Shown piece after piece: positions 12,181 through 16,442 of a stretch of DNA of 38,086 bases. Each line of letters opens with the position of its first letter. Position 1 is the first letter of the stretch. This stretch comes from Candidatus Phocaeicola faecipullorum (GTDB taxonomy: Bacteria > Bacteroidota > Bacteroidia > Bacteroidales > Bacteroidaceae). The notes beneath the pieces are model-generated. The model did no database searches, had not been told where the DNA came from, and saw only the letters and a program-made list of their open reading frames with translations. The stretch spans positions 1 to 38,086 of the forward strand of contig JAHLFB010000180.1 of the NCBI GenBank assembly GCA_018884025.1. Reading direction: 5' to 3'. A program made the position numbers and the translations under genes.

Positions 12181-12481
12181 GAACGGGCAATGAACGGTGA
12201 ATGAACGCTCAGTTAACATTATCCGGACTGATACTTTATAAGAAATAGAGGTTCTTCTTATGTTATTAAATAGCATTTAAATACTGCTTAAATAGCGTTT
12301 AAATAGTATTCGAATAGTGTTAGAATGTCATTCGAAGACCATTAGAATATTAAAAAACTTTTTTTAAGAACAATTTGTAATATCAGAAAACGCATAATGA
12401 AAGTATTCCCTCCTTCATCATTATGCGTTTTTTCATTGTTCAGCACACGTTCACTGAATGTTCAGTAAACGTTCACTAATA
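12181..12481. repeat. Left 11-bp-periodic repeat/hairpin element
   Basis: Three arrays with an exact 11-bp pitch surround a hairpin. (a) 12181-12224: four units beginning GAACG, GAACG, GAACG, TAACA. (b) 12266-12353: eight units beginning TTAAATA in the first four and degenerating to TNGAA in the last four; each unit has a constant core and a variable 4-5 bp tail. (c) 12438-12481: four units beginning GTTCA. Arrays (a) and (c) carry complementary cores, so the whole element is roughly mirror-symmetric about the hairpin at 12387-12431. No open reading frame crosses it. A related copy lies at 17510-17677. Confidence 0.85.
12387..12433. terminator. Strong hairpin terminator inside the left repeat element
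   Basis: AAAACGCATAATGA (12387-12400) pairs perfectly with TCATTATGCGTTTT (12418-12431) over 14 bp, loop 17 nt, with A-rich and T-rich ends that allow termination on either strand. It would end the prmA transcript. Confidence 0.8.
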
Positions 12482-12576
12482 AATAAATGGACTAATTTGG
12501 ACTTTACACAATACATGAATTAATCATATTTTTGAAAAAATAAATACCAACAGAGCGTAATATTAACAAAAAACGT

Positions 12577-12584
12577 TATATTTG
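12577..12584 (+). promoter_or_regulatory. -7 box for the structured RNA / small gene unit
   Basis: TATATTTG fits TAnnTTTG. The expected transcription start is near 12590, right at the first stem of the structured RNA. Confidence 0.5.
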
Positions 12585-12589
12585 CAATG

Positions 12590-12845
12590 TTCGACCGGAG
12601 AAATGGTTGGACGTAAAGAATGCGTTTTTTGCTTTTATCCTGCAACTGAAATCGCCAATTTCTAAAACAGAAGGATAAAGGACAATATTACGCTCATTTT
12701 CTGTTTGTATATGTACCCGGTATGGTATCTCCATATCGGTCGATACTACATTCAGGCGTGGGTTAATTGTCTTTGTTCATTTCTGTAAGGTGTTTGGCGA
12801 TACCGAGTTGCGATGAACAGCATGACAAGCCTCACGCCTTTCTTT
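12590..12845 (+). ncRNA. Structured RNA or long 5' leader of unknown family
   Basis: The stretch between a promoter box and the small gene folds into a chain of stems. 12590-12596 pairs with 12605-12611 (7 bp). 12634-12641 with 12672-12679 (8 bp, TTTATCCT/AGGATAAA) encloses a 5-bp stem at 12648-12662. CCGGTATGG with CCATATCGG (12717-12725/12731-12739) gives 9 bp around a 5-nt loop. A long nested arm spans 12755-12838: GGCGTGGG with CTCACGCC, TTGTC with GACAA, and TGTTCAT with ATGAACA. A short T-rich stretch follows. It could be a free small RNA of 6S type or a cis-regulatory leader of the next gene; I cannot assign it to a known family. No protein-coding signal is seen here. Confidence 0.55.
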
Positions 12846-12903
12846 GTATAATTTAGTAATGTCGAATTCGGGGGCTTATAGAGAAATAGAAAAACACATA
12901 GTT

Positions 12904-13188
12904 ATGAGTAAAGAAAGTATTAAGGCTTCAATTGAAACTGAAAAGGGTAGAATTGCACAATTACGCACTACTATTGCAACTCTTCGTTCACGTAAAAGTG
13001 AAGCCAGTGCACGTTATGCAGCAAAAATTGCAGGAGCAACACAAAAAGGTTCTAAAGATAGTTACCGCAAAGAAAAAGCTTCTGTTATTGCCCACATAGA
13101 ATCAGAAATTCGCTTAAAACAATCAGCATTAGCATCACACCAACAACGTATAGCATCATTGCGTGCTATGTTAAAAACTGCAAAATAA
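12904..13188 (+). CDS. Small basic coiled-coil protein, unknown function
   Basis: 94 residues from the ATG at 12904. Another in-frame ATG at 12859 would add 15 residues, but that stretch looks like leader sequence. The protein is nearly all helix with heptad-like spacing and is rich in Ser, Ala, Lys, Arg and Gln (EKGRIAQLRTTIATLRSRKS near the start and HQQRIASLRAMLKTAK at the end). A central hinge sits at GATQKGSKDSY. There is no signal peptide or membrane span, so it should be cytoplasmic. I do not recognise the family. It follows the structured RNA with no terminator that clearly separates them, and has a strong terminator after it, so RNA and gene may form one unit. Confidence 0.65.
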   Translation: MSKESIKASIETEKGRIAQLRTTIATLRSRKSEASARYAAKIAGATQKGSKDSYRKEKASVIAHIESEIRLKQSALASHQQRIASLRAMLKTAK

Positions 13189-13283
13189 TAAATAATTCAT
13201 TATAAAATTTCAACTAATGTCTATAATTAAATATTATTGAAGTTAAATATAAACTTAAATATACCTTATTTACTTCAAAACTA

Positions 13284-14341: not shown

Positions 14342-15334
14342 ATGAAATACCTTTACTATATATTATTAGCTTTTTGCTGTGTTTCTTGTGGACAAGGGAA
14401 CAAGCAAAAAAATATTACAGATATTAGCATTTCGGAAAACAAAGACAACACCGTTAATGTCATCAATCAGGCAAAACCCAAACTGATGATTATCCCAAGT
14501 GACAGAATGTTAAAGGACGAGAAATGCCTTACAATCAATACTTTCAATGGGAAGAAAACTATAATAAGAGATATATCTGGATTTATAGTAAAAAGTGAAA
14601 AGTCAAATAGTATAATCTCGGCTATTCAAAAGTATTTCATACAAATAGGATATCCTCTGAATGATCTGGAACAATCACTTAAAGCCATAAATGACAGACA
14701 AATTTTGGATGAAGCTGACAATATTGTAAAAGACGCCAAGACACTTCTTCTGAATACAGTTTCACCCGATATAATACTGGAACTTGACTATCAAGAAAAT
14801 GTTATAACAGGAAGGACTTCAAGAAAATCGTATATCAATATAGCATTGTCAGCCATAGATGTATATTCCGATAAAGTCATTGCCGTAGCAAATAAAAATA
14901 ATCTTGATATGAGTTTAGATGAATACTTGGAAAAAGGAATTACAAAAGATTTGGAAACACTTGAGCCTCAGCTAAGAAACTATTTCACTGATATAGTAAC
15001 TAATGGTAGAGAAATCTCATTTAGAGTTACTCTTAGCAATGACTGTCCAATCAGCTTATCGGACATGTATAATAATGAAGGAGATACATATTCTGACTGG
15101 ATTCGCCGCTGGGTAATAACAAATGCTAAAAATGGCAGCGCAAACATGGTATCAAATACAAAAAAAGAAATAGCATTTACCAATGTAAGAATATCAAATG
15201 TAATGGATGATGGAACTCAGTTTAATGCATACGAGTTTGCAGGAAAGTTCAGAAAAGAATTCTTCAAAACATTCTCATTACAGTTAAGCAACAATTCTCA
15301 AGGATTAGGTAATGCATTAGTAATCATAAATTAA
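14342..15334 (+). CDS. Lipoprotein resembling DUF6175 family
   Basis: 330 residues. The leader MKYLYYILLAFCCVSCG gives a lipobox VSC with the lipidated Cys at 16. The mature part contains KPKLMIIPSDRMLK near residue 45, a central region NTVSPDIILELDY, a segment GREISFRVTLS near 220, and the ending GLGNALVIIN. These match what I remember of the Bacteroidetes DUF6175 family, whose function is not known. It would be anchored in the envelope. The next lipoprotein gene starts 10 bp downstream, so the two products are probably made together. Confidence 0.7.
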   Translation: MKYLYYILLAFCCVSCGQGNKQKNITDISISENKDNTVNVINQAKPKLMIIPSDRMLKDEKCLTINTFNGKKTIIRDISGFIVKSEKSNSIISAIQKYFIQIGYPLNDLEQSLKAINDRQILDEADNIVKDAKTLLLNTVSPDIILELDYQENVITGRTSRKSYINIALSAIDVYSDKVIAVANKNNLDMSLDEYLEKGITKDLETLEPQLRNYFTDIVTNGREISFRVTLSNDCPISLSDMYNNEGDTYSDWIRRWVITNAKNGSANMVSNTKKEIAFTNVRISNVMDDGTQFNAYEFAGKFRKEFFKTFSLQLSNNSQGLGNALVIIN

Positions 15335-15344
15335 TCACTTATAT

Positions 15345-16442
15345 ATGAAAAAGATTATCCTATTGTTTGGTATAGTTTTATGTGGATGTGGAGCATGTTC
15401 GGAAAATAAAAATAACAATAAGCCGACATTCAATCCGACTACACAAGAAACTGTTGTAACCAATAAAATATCCAATATCAGTAAAACTGTATCTCCAATT
15501 AATGGCAATATTGCACTAAGCGTTATTGTACAAAACAATCTGCCATCAGAAAGTGCAGAATTACTGAAATCAAAGATTATAAATATTATAACACATAATG
15601 GTATAGCATCACAAGGCGTTAATCCACAAATCATAGTTGCTCCGACTTTGACAGAAATCAACTATGATATAACCTCTACCCTACCCCAGAAACATAAAAT
15701 TAATTATAGTGCCACAATCTATATTGGAAATATCCTGACAGGAGAAATATTCAATTCAATAAACAAAACGATTATTGGCGTAGGCGATTCAAAAGAATTA
15801 GCTATAATGAATGCCATTTCTTCTATTTCTACAAATGATACAGATATAACAAATCTCATTAGCAGAACTGAACAGAAAATCATCAATTATTATAATACTA
15901 ATGGAGAATTGTTACTGAATGAAGCTGTCGGATACATTAATAATCATAAATACGAAGAAGCATTAGCTATATTAAATTCAATACCAAAGGAATGTCAGGC
16001 ATTGTACAAGAAATCTTCTAAAATGAGGTTTGATGCTATAGAAAAATATATGGAAAATAACTCCGATATAATGCTGAATGACTTTAAAGCCACATTAGGT
16101 ACAGAAAGAGATAATATTGGAGGATTTTCTAAAAAAGCTATGGCTATATACAGGAATATACCATCGGATTCGAAGGCAAAAAAAGAAGCTGACAAAATAT
16201 ATTCTGAATATATAAAAAGCCTTAATCCGGAAGCAAAGCTAAAACATGAGCAGGACATGAGGGAATGGGATTCAACAATGAAACAGCTCGACAGACAATA
16301 TGAATTGGATATGTATAAGACAGAAATGTCAACAAAAGTAGCAATAGAAGGACAGACTGCATTGTTGGAAAAATACAAGAAAGATGTAAACTACGAGAAA
16401 ATGAGCTGGTTAGGTAAATTATTCTATTTTGGAAAGGAATAA
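15345..16442 (+). CDS. Lipoprotein with helical repeat tail, unknown function
   Basis: 365 residues. The leader has Cys-rich lipobox candidates (LCGCGACS), so it is probably a lipoprotein. Residues 50-170 read as an alternating beta/alpha domain (LSVIVQNNLPSESAELLKSK, PQIIVAPTLTEINYDITST, KINYSATIYIGNILTGEIF), reminiscent of envelope proteins of the CsgG/LpoB-like kind, but this is only a loose resemblance. A helical repeat follows (LLNEAVGYINNHKYEEALAI is TPR-like) and then a long charged helix (HEQDMREWDSTMKQLDRQYE). It sits 10 bp after the DUF6175-like gene and 4 bp before the next gene, so translation is probably coupled. Confidence 0.65.
   Translation: MKKIILLFGIVLCGCGACSENKNNNKPTFNPTTQETVVTNKISNISKTVSPINGNIALSVIVQNNLPSESAELLKSKIINIITHNGIASQGVNPQIIVAPTLTEINYDITSTLPQKHKINYSATIYIGNILTGEIFNSINKTIIGVGDSKELAIMNAISSISTNDTDITNLISRTEQKIINYYNTNGELLLNEAVGYINNHKYEEALAILNSIPKECQALYKKSSKMRFDAIEKYMENNSDIMLNDFKATLGTERDNIGGFSKKAMAIYRNIPSDSKAKKEADKIYSEYIKSLNPEAKLKHEQDMREWDSTMKQLDRQYELDMYKTEMSTKVAIEGQTALLEKYKKDVNYEKMSWLGKLFYFGKE

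What the first reader, a model, noticed from the sequence alone, without database searches (positions are those of the whole stretch)
12577..12845. About 250-nt highly structured RNA between a promoter box and a small gene
The stretch holds at least five good stems, including a three-part nested arm of 84 nt closed by GGCGTGGG/CTCACGCC, directly after a Bacteroidetes -7 box, with a short T-rich end. It is more GC-rich and more structured than its AT-rich surroundings. It does not match tmRNA, RNase P RNA or SRP RNA as I know them. It may be a stand-alone sRNA (a divergent 6S RNA is one option) or a new cis-regulatory leader or RNA partner of the downstream coiled-coil protein.
Basis: partly seen in the sequence, partly recalled or inferred. 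Interest (0 to 1): 0.75.

Follow-up and report, generated by a model that had tools for sequence, protein, structure and literature searches.

The report
Widespread kissing-loop leader RNA
The stretch is a real, elaborately knotted RNA that sits just before genes, often for exported proteins, in many gut Bacteroidales and some more distant bacteria, matches no RNA family in the Rfam library, and probably acts as a built-in control switch for the gene that follows it.

Summary
In detail: 12540-12860 folds far better than shuffled sequence (z -7.7) and matches no Rfam family. It is one copy of a large RNA family. Models built here find it in 49 of 61 genomes of the genus and 77 of 295 of the order, with up to 31 hits per genome, and in the phylum of a MAG titled Lentisphaerae (9 of 194).

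Two hairpins pair through their big loops along three consecutive helices (LR1-KL-LR3, roughly 20-30 bp). The pairs are private to each copy: among 26 copies of one Parabacteroides genome, a loop's own partner is best in 21.

In this family a Bacteroidetes promoter precedes the RNA and a stem plus U-run ends it. The next ORF is on the same strand in 117 of 121 loci; in 91 it starts within 300 nt, median 64 nt. A box after the U-run pairs with, and overlaps, the terminator-like stem.

Best reading: a cis-acting, attenuator-type leader for accessory, often exported proteins. Signal and expression are untested. It is not 6S RNA, and the window's coiled-coil protein is one of many interchangeable downstream genes.

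The parts
12527..12534 (+). TATTTTTG, candidate upstream -7 element; the transcript would start near 12541 and include P1 and P2
   Evidence: a TAnnTTTG 40-75 nt before the inner one is present in 24 of 47 copies with P1 against 8 of 101 without
12553..12564 (+). P1 5' arm (pairs with 12684-12695)
   Evidence: 12 bp; of the 7 P1 pairs counted on 17 sequences one has changes on both sides, in 8 sequences, and none is broken; P1 present in 47 of 148 copies by the rule, some of these doubtful
12568..12575 (+). P2 5' arm (pairs with 12623-12630)
   Evidence: not tested by covariation
12577..12584 (+). TATATTTG, family-wide inner promoter -7 box
   Evidence: at least one TAnnTTTG in 150 of 163 stretches (the 163 include three chance matches); TTG 19-20 nt upstream in 62 of 149; in this copy the -33 TTG is missing
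12590..12611 (+). P3 hairpin (12590-12596 / 12605-12611), 5'-terminal hairpin if the inner promoter is used
   Evidence: cognate arms beat non-cognate in 1866 of 2237 trials
12623..12630 (+). P2 3' arm
12632..12641 (+). P4 5' arm (pairs with 12672-12680)
   Evidence: cognate > non-cognate 1601 of 2356
12642..12647 (+). LR1 5' arm GCAACT (pairs with 12806-12811)
   Evidence: cognate > non-cognate 2290 of 2354
12652..12658 (+). kissing loop (KL) 5' arm TCGCCAA (pairs with 12794-12800)
   Evidence: replaced by other complementary pairs in other copies
12667..12672 (+). LR3 5' arm ACAGAA (pairs with 12781-12786)
   Evidence: cognate > non-cognate 2119 of 2354
12672..12680 (+). P4 3' arm
12684..12695 (+). 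P1 3' arm
12717..12739 (+). P5 hairpin (12717-12725 / 12731-12739), variable in the family
12755..12762 (+). P6 5' arm, terminator-like stem (pairs with 12830-12838)
   Evidence: 7 of 8 pairs with changes on both sides in 57 sequences, 98.9% of cells paired
12773..12780 (+). P7 5' arm (pairs with 12813-12820)
   Evidence: 5 of 5 pairs counted with changes on both sides, 91.0% of cells paired
12781..12786 (+). LR3 3' arm
12789..12804 (+). P8 (12789-12792 / 12801-12804) with KL 3' arm 12794-12800
   Evidence: GGYGTTTGGCGATRCC; invariant in A3 partly because the scan pattern demanded it; 1 of 3 pairs changes on both sides
12806..12811 (+). LR1 3' arm
12813..12820 (+). P7 3' arm
12827..12833 (+). 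PK2 5' arm AAGCCTC, overlaps the P6 3' arm
12830..12838 (+). P6 3' arm
12839..12845 (+). U-run after P6
   Evidence: a T-rich run (at least 5 T in 7) found in 153 of 158 copies
12870..12877 (+). 3' box (PK2 3' arm) GGGGGCTT, can pair with 12827-12833
   Evidence: cognate > non-cognate in 1701 of 2283 trials against 1207 of 2282 for a control pairing
12904..13188 (+). first downstream gene, 94 aa, coiled-coil-like by eye and weak Pfam hits; exchangeable cargo

Best explanation
A cis-acting 5' leader RNA that controls the gene after it. Transcription starts at a Bacteroidetes promoter (in this genus probably near 12541, otherwise near 12590). The nascent RNA folds into P4, then P6-P7-P8, and the two large loops lock together through LR1, KL and LR3, whose sequences are private to each copy so that paralogous leaders do not cross-pair. 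The P6 stem followed by a U-run ends many transcripts or stalls polymerase, leaving a stable RNA of about 260-300 nt. When an unknown signal (small molecule, protein or translation state) prevents the P6 stem from closing, transcription reads on. In the read-through RNA the 3' box pairs with the P6 3' arm (PK2), keeps the terminator stem open and leaves the start codon free about 60 nt downstream. Shown by computation: the architecture and its covariation, the promoter motif, the U-run, the place before a same-strand gene, and the overlap of PK2 with P6 where PK2 is seen. Inferred: that it is transcribed, that it regulates at all, attenuation as the mode, and the existence of a signal.
For: Next downstream ORF of at least 80 aa on the same strand in 117 of 121 loci, against 78 of 121 for the next upstream one; in 91 of 121 it starts within 300 nt of the U-run (median of those 64 nt), and TAnnTTTG lies between in only 10 of these 91. 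P6/P7/P8: 78 cells changed on both sides against 19.4 shuffled, 96.7% paired, 0 of 500 shuffles as high, slid controls 44-61% paired. LR1, LR3 and PK2 cognate tests. One genome, 26 copies: cognate duplex -29.7 against -13.5 kcal/mol, own partner best (one tie with a near-identical copy) in 21 of 26; 157 copies overall, -40.4 against -24.8. Twenty hits picked by hand from the R3 lists, found by the 3' half alone and not in its training set: each pairs with an upstream segment at -30.6 or better, mean -36.6 against -22.3 (sd 5.3) for non-cognate, own partner better than all ten others in 13 of 20. PK2 overlaps P6 by at least 2 nt in 72 of the 74 copies where both score well, of 153 examined. Promoter. 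Signal-peptide-like start by a simple rule in 71 of 120 first genes against 144 of 588 other ORFs.
Against: The 3' box lies after the U-run, so it cannot prevent first-pass termination; it may act on translation or stability instead. PK2 scores well in only 74 of 153 copies. The P6 stem encloses a loop of 67 nt here and a standard terminator scan finds none. Downstream genes share no pathway (67 Pfam families in 122 of the 142 first genes, largest 14), unusual for a metabolite riboswitch. In 30 of the 121 loci no same-strand ORF of at least 80 aa starts within 300 nt (some hold a shorter gene). Tandem copies (for example own genome C209 at 51.7 and 52.2 kb) are unexplained. Two R1 hits (L043, L044) show no recognisable 3' half. 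The loci include close relatives, so the counts are not independent. No transcript data were available.
Confidence: 0.55

Rival explanations
1. A leader, but a passive one: the kissing complex is an exonuclease-resistant or translation-helping 5' end that gives the mRNA of accessory proteins a long life or good ribosome access. There is no switch and the U-run is incidental.
For: Place before same-strand genes; private, stable pairing; the 3' box close to the start codon; no common pathway downstream.
Against: The U-run and P6 are kept in nearly all copies examined, and PK2, where seen, competes with P6, which a passive stabiliser would not need.
Confidence: 0.18
2. A stand-alone RNA gene with its own promoter and terminator that acts in trans or on proteins (sRNA, 6S-like); the neighbour gene is a bystander.
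For: Promoter motif, compact fold, stem plus U-run at the end; 30 of 121 loci without a same-strand ORF of at least 80 aa within 300 nt.
Against: 117 of 121 same-strand next ORFs, a covarying box beyond the U-run, private loop sequences per copy, no match to 6S families of Rfam.
Confidence: 0.13
3. A recombination joint: the element is kept because its structured DNA or RNA lets different genes be swapped in behind it, as at an integron-like site. Regulation is secondary.
For: At the locus of the window the element is 92-100% identical per 25 nt over 12551-12800 in three relatives, while what follows is unrelated and the switch lies inside or just after the element. Tandem copies occur. Five of the 20 loci lie within about 210 nt of a contig end. 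Resolvase-like genes stand upstream in L005 and (a fragment) L004, and an integrase-like gene beside L015, by eye.
Against: Plain homologous recombination over a conserved leader explains the swaps. The recombinase-like genes are not constant neighbours in the loci listed (not searched with family models). Covariation in the transcribed part, the promoter motif and the U-run point to RNA.
Confidence: 0.08

Closest known systems
Transcription-attenuating riboswitch or leader RNAs, in particular kissing-loop riboswitches such as purine, lysine and cobalamin (recalled; no Rfam family matched)
   Same: Structured 5' leader, promoter upstream, stem plus U-run before the gene, a tertiary loop-loop contact
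   Different: Three consecutive long-range helices, roughly 20-30 bp in all, with no fixed sequence; genes of no common pathway; up to 31 hits in one genome; competing box after the U-run instead of before it
Bacteroidetes motifs of Rfam (Bacteroidales-1, Bacteroides-1, Bacteroid-trp, Flavo-1, 6S-Flavo; named in a table passage of PMC2864571)
   Same: Structured RNAs of the same bacteria
   Different: None reaches its gathering score in the window or in 10 related loci, nor E up to 10 on 12400-12910
Candidate structured RNAs of human microbiomes, PMC8040213 (abstract and passages seen)
   Same: Several Bacteroidetes candidates, some upstream of genes or predicted to be terminators
   Different: The motifs whose length is shown in the passages are 40-132 bp with other neighbours; the supplementary list was not searched, so a fragment of this element may be in it
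Processive antitermination leaders (UpxY/LoaP type; recalled)
   Same: A leader RNA before accessory, often surface-related operons (two of 122 first genes match polysaccharide export)
   Different: Not tested: I did not search for NusG paralogues near the element, and one search shows only 25 of its 67 families

Membership tests
6S RNA | Match to an Rfam 6S model | tested here: not met
   Searches (window; 10 relatives): no match
6S RNA | One or few copies, stand-alone gene | tested here: not met
   2 to 31 hits in seven named genomes at E up to 0.01; next ORF on the same strand in 117 of 121
cis-regulatory leader RNA (kind, not family) | Constant position and orientation to a downstream gene | tested here: met
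   same strand in 117 of 121; within 300 nt in 91 of 121, median 64 nt of these
cis-regulatory leader RNA (kind, not family) | Conserved structure with compensating changes | tested here: met
cis-regulatory leader RNA (kind, not family) | Changes expression of the gene | not testable with these tools
   needs reporter or RNA-seq
metabolite riboswitch | Downstream genes of one pathway | tested here: not met
   67 Pfam families in 122 first genes; largest LRR_5 with 14
metabolite riboswitch | Ligand binding | not testable with these tools
   needs in-line probing
intrinsic terminator / attenuator | GC-rich stem followed by U-run | tested here: inconclusive
   T-run in 153 of 158 copies after P6, but the loop is 67 nt here and a standard scan finds none
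type III toxin-antitoxin, retron or DGR RNA | Fixed partner protein next to the RNA | tested here: not met
   no family among more than 14 of 122 first genes; upstream genes only read by eye

The most novel reading that the evidence does not exclude
A distinct class of very large loop-loop RNA switch found in at least two phyla, in which each gene copy carries its own private 'lock' of three matched helices. One genome holds about 30 largely orthogonal versions, about a dozen of them before paralogous exported proteins, so the leader acts as a portable, self-insulated control module that travels with or receives interchangeable surface genes.
Probability: 0.35. Interest if true: 0.92.

Novelty: new variant of a known kind. 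Interest (0 to 1): 0.82.

Why it matters
If it holds, a sizeable part of the accessory gene repertoire of gut Bacteroidales (BspA-like repeat proteins, lipoproteins, some capsule export) sits behind one shared RNA device that Rfam does not list. It offers a natural set of orthogonal long loop-loop pairs, and it makes a direct question testable: what signal opens the roughly 30 leaders of one Parabacteroides genome, together or one by one.

Tried and rejected
Rfam at gathering score and, on 12400-12910, at E up to 10: nothing relevant. 6S RNA: rejected. The coiled-coil protein as fixed RNA partner: rejected. P1 as a universal part: I first took it for universal; only part of the family has it. 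A single-strand-DNA promoter or an R-loop on its own promoter: considered because P1 and P2 overlap the inner promoter, dropped because most copies lack P1. Integron-like cassette site: kept as a weak rival. Plasmids: no match; phages: two partial matches; IMG/VR: six pattern matches, one of them (L188) chance.

Rows dropped and faults. Alignment used 16 of the 20 loci then held (L013, L015, L016, L019 left out as short). Alignment A2 held three rows that I had placed wrongly; it was redone without them. L102, L164 and L188 were set aside as chance matches. L139 and L189 were set aside with them before the counts, but one search shows that they look like members; still contain all five where they passed the other filters. 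L061 was set aside as a false R1 hit; L043, L044 and L019 were also left out of the 3' listing. One search used 122 of the 142 first genes. R2 was built from copies with one kissing-loop sequence, so its prevalence is a lower bound.

Paper searches in which I found no description: (listings). Passages only: PMC7366714, PMC10994844, PMC9723704, PMC2864571, PMC11109978; abstract, outline and passages: PMC8040213.

Full report
What is in the window. It is richer in GC than its flanks (0.41 against 0.28). No Rfam family matches, at gathering score over the whole window (apart from a distant tRNA) or at E up to 10 over 12400-12910 apart from two chance hits on the other strand. The gene after it, 12904-13188, encodes a 94-aa protein that looks like a coiled coil and is found only in the window's own genome (1 of 60).

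It is a family. BLAST with 12540-12860 hits 16 of 60 relatives, the own genome included, several more than once. A covariance model of the 5' half (R1) hits 23 of 61 genomes of the genus and 8 of 295 of the order. A model of the 3' half (R2) hits 77 of 295 genomes of the order at E up to 0.001, and 10 of 345 of the phylum, the own one included in both; the four loci read outside the order (L197-L200) show matched loops by eye. R3, which includes other kissing loops, hits 49 of 61 of the genus and 39 of 149 of the order at E up to 1e-4. Hits at E up to 0.01 in seven named genomes: Parabacteroides An277 31 (one place counted on both strands; 26 of them read), B. timonensis 12, B. acidifaciens 10, B. 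caecigallinarum 7, B. fragilis Q1F2 4, Xylanibacter rodentium 3, Coprobacter secundus 2. The own genome has 13 at E up to 0.1, again with one place on both strands; one of those read, L209, shows no 5' half.

Beyond the phylum. A contig titled Lentisphaerae (L139) and an IMG/VR contig (L189) carry members with matched loops. The MAG of L139 has three R3 hits, all weak (E 0.0015 to 0.06), with loop partners upstream (no control run there). In the phylum of that MAG 9 of 194 genomes have hits at E up to 0.001, and the MAG itself has none at that cut-off. Of eight loci read there, six show an upstream partner by eye (L292, L293, L295, L296, L298, L299) and two do not (L294, L297); in four of the eight (L292, L295, L298, L299) the own partner beats all seven others, in the other four it does not.

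Architecture. P4 (12632-12641/12672-12680) closes a 30-nt loop. P6 (12755-12762/12830-12838) and P7 (12773-12780/12813-12820) close a second loop with a small hairpin P8. The two loops pair through LR1 (12642-12647/12806-12811), KL (12652-12658/12794-12800) and LR3 (12667-12672/12781-12786). On 57 sequences P6-P7-P8 have 96.7% of cells paired and 78 cells changed on both sides, against 19.4 in shuffles (0 of 500 as high) and 12-14 in slid versions. For the long-range helices I asked whether a copy's 5' arm fits its own 3' arm better than another copy's. LR1 did so in 2290 of 2354 trials, LR3 in 2119 of 2354. P3 (1866 of 2237), P4 (1601 of 2356), P7 (1662 of 2364) and P6 (1567 of 2285) are weaker, as expected if their sequences are more alike. 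KL is TCGCCAA/TTGGCGA in the window and other matched pairs elsewhere (CTGGAA/TTCCAG, CGGCAAA/TTTGCCG, TTCTCGCA/TGCGAGAA and more).

Private locks. In 26 copies of Parabacteroides An277 the own partner is the best of 26 in 21 cases (one a tie with a near-identical copy), mean -29.7 against -13.5 kcal/mol. In the five failures the script cut the 5' arm in the wrong place, as its printed segments show; I did not rerun it. Twenty further hits that R3 had found by the 3' half alone, picked by hand and not in its training set (some are relatives of training rows), were fetched. Each has an upstream partner at -30.6 kcal/mol or better; 13 of 20 beat all ten non-cognate partners tried, and several of the other seven have a near-copy among the twenty.

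Promoter and 5' end. TAnnTTTG lies in the stretch before the core in 150 of 163 sequences (five of the 163 were later set aside, see Tried and rejected). Among 149 with enough sequence, TTG stands 19-20 nt upstream in 62; at any other single spacing it stands in at most 14. This is the Bacteroidetes -33/-7 promoter (consensus recalled). In the window's genus an extra stem P1 lies upstream of it. Copies with P1 more often have a second TAnnTTTG further up (24 of 47 against 8 of 101) and less often the inner -33 TTG (15 of 47 against 55 of 101). So here the RNA probably starts near 12541.

3' end and the gene. A T-rich run follows in 153 of 158 copies. The nearest downstream ORF of at least 80 aa is on the same strand in 117 of 121 loci with enough flank, the nearest upstream one in 78 of 121. 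In 91 of the 121 the same-strand ORF starts within 300 nt of the U-run, with a median of 64 nt, and TAnnTTTG lies between in 10 of these 91. A box after the U-run pairs with the 3' side of P6: cognate beats non-cognate in 1701 of 2283 trials, against 1207 of 2282 for a control pairing. Where both helices score well (74 of 153) they overlap by 2 nt or more in 72. This makes a leader more likely than a stand-alone RNA, and it suggests, but does not show, a competition between terminator-like stem and box. Because the box is made after the U-run it cannot by itself stop termination, and a standard terminator scan does not recognise the stem in the window.

Cargo. First downstream genes are diverse: in 122 of 142 first genes, 67 Pfam families appear (25 shown), the largest BspA-type LRR with 14; others include BACON, CotH, tubulin-like and two polysaccharide export proteins. 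A signal-peptide-like start (simple rule) is present in 71 of 120 first genes of at least 100 aa against 144 of 588 other ORFs of the named and viral loci. Twelve of 142 first genes are one small helix-turn-helix-like protein (neither of the two tested matches Pfam or NCBIfam). At the window's locus the leader is 92-100% identical per 25 nt over 12551-12800 in three relatives (prmA upstream seen in two of them) while what follows is unrelated.

Novelty. Seven paper searches and passages of six papers gave no description. The supplementary list of PMC8040213 was not searched. I call it a new variant of a known kind: a leader RNA with an architecture that matches no Rfam family.

Noticed in passing
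window 12800-13190 against L029, L046, L002: Same flank and same leader but unrelated downstream sequence (prmA upstream seen in L029 and L002); in L029 the switch lies inside the RNA near 12810, in L002 and L046 near 12880-12900.
   Followed up: partly
L063, L018, L045, L050, L027 (and G060:C126): Tandem pairs of the RNA 464-551 nt apart with no long ORF seen between; the upstream copy scores lower with R1.
   Followed up: no
L066, L086, L088, L091, L101, L108, L112, L117, L119, L127, L144, L170: A small helix-turn-helix-like protein (about 70-80 aa in most, motif FAxxxxCxRxNxYxIF) is the first gene after the RNA in 12 of 142 first genes; the two tested match no Pfam or NCBIfam family.
   Followed up: partly
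L010, L020, L041, L045, L050: A divergent gene, helix-turn-helix-like by eye, lies 120-153 nt upstream of the RNA (of the upstream copy in L045 and L050).
   Followed up: no
L230-L255 (Parabacteroides An277): About a dozen exported-looking proteins starting MNKK (most MNKKVLTL), each behind its own copy of the RNA with its own loop pair; of three tested, one has a borderline DUF6266 hit and two none.
   Followed up: partly
L139, L189, L288-L299: Members of the RNA family in a Lentisphaerae-titled MAG, a viral-collection contig and the wider phylum; two of eight wider loci show no partner.
   Followed up: partly
L100, L106: MAG contigs titled Lachnoclostridium and Paenibacillus carry copies that look typical of Bacteroidales; the titles are probably wrong.
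   Followed up: no
L005, L004, L015: Resolvase-like genes upstream (L005, fragment in L004) and an integrase-like gene beside the hit (L015), by eye.
   Followed up: no
L043, L044, L209: Copies that look partial: L043 and L044 without a recognisable 3' half, L209 without a 5' half.
   Followed up: no
window 12266-12340: Short AT-rich repeats (TTAAATAGCATTTAAATA...) between prmA and the leader; GTTTGAATAG-like repeats lie before other copies (L063, L027).
   Followed up: no
window 14342-16442: A DUF6175 protein and another lipoprotein-like gene; a protein that looks similar by eye follows the leader in L005, so cargo may recur between loci.
   Followed up: no
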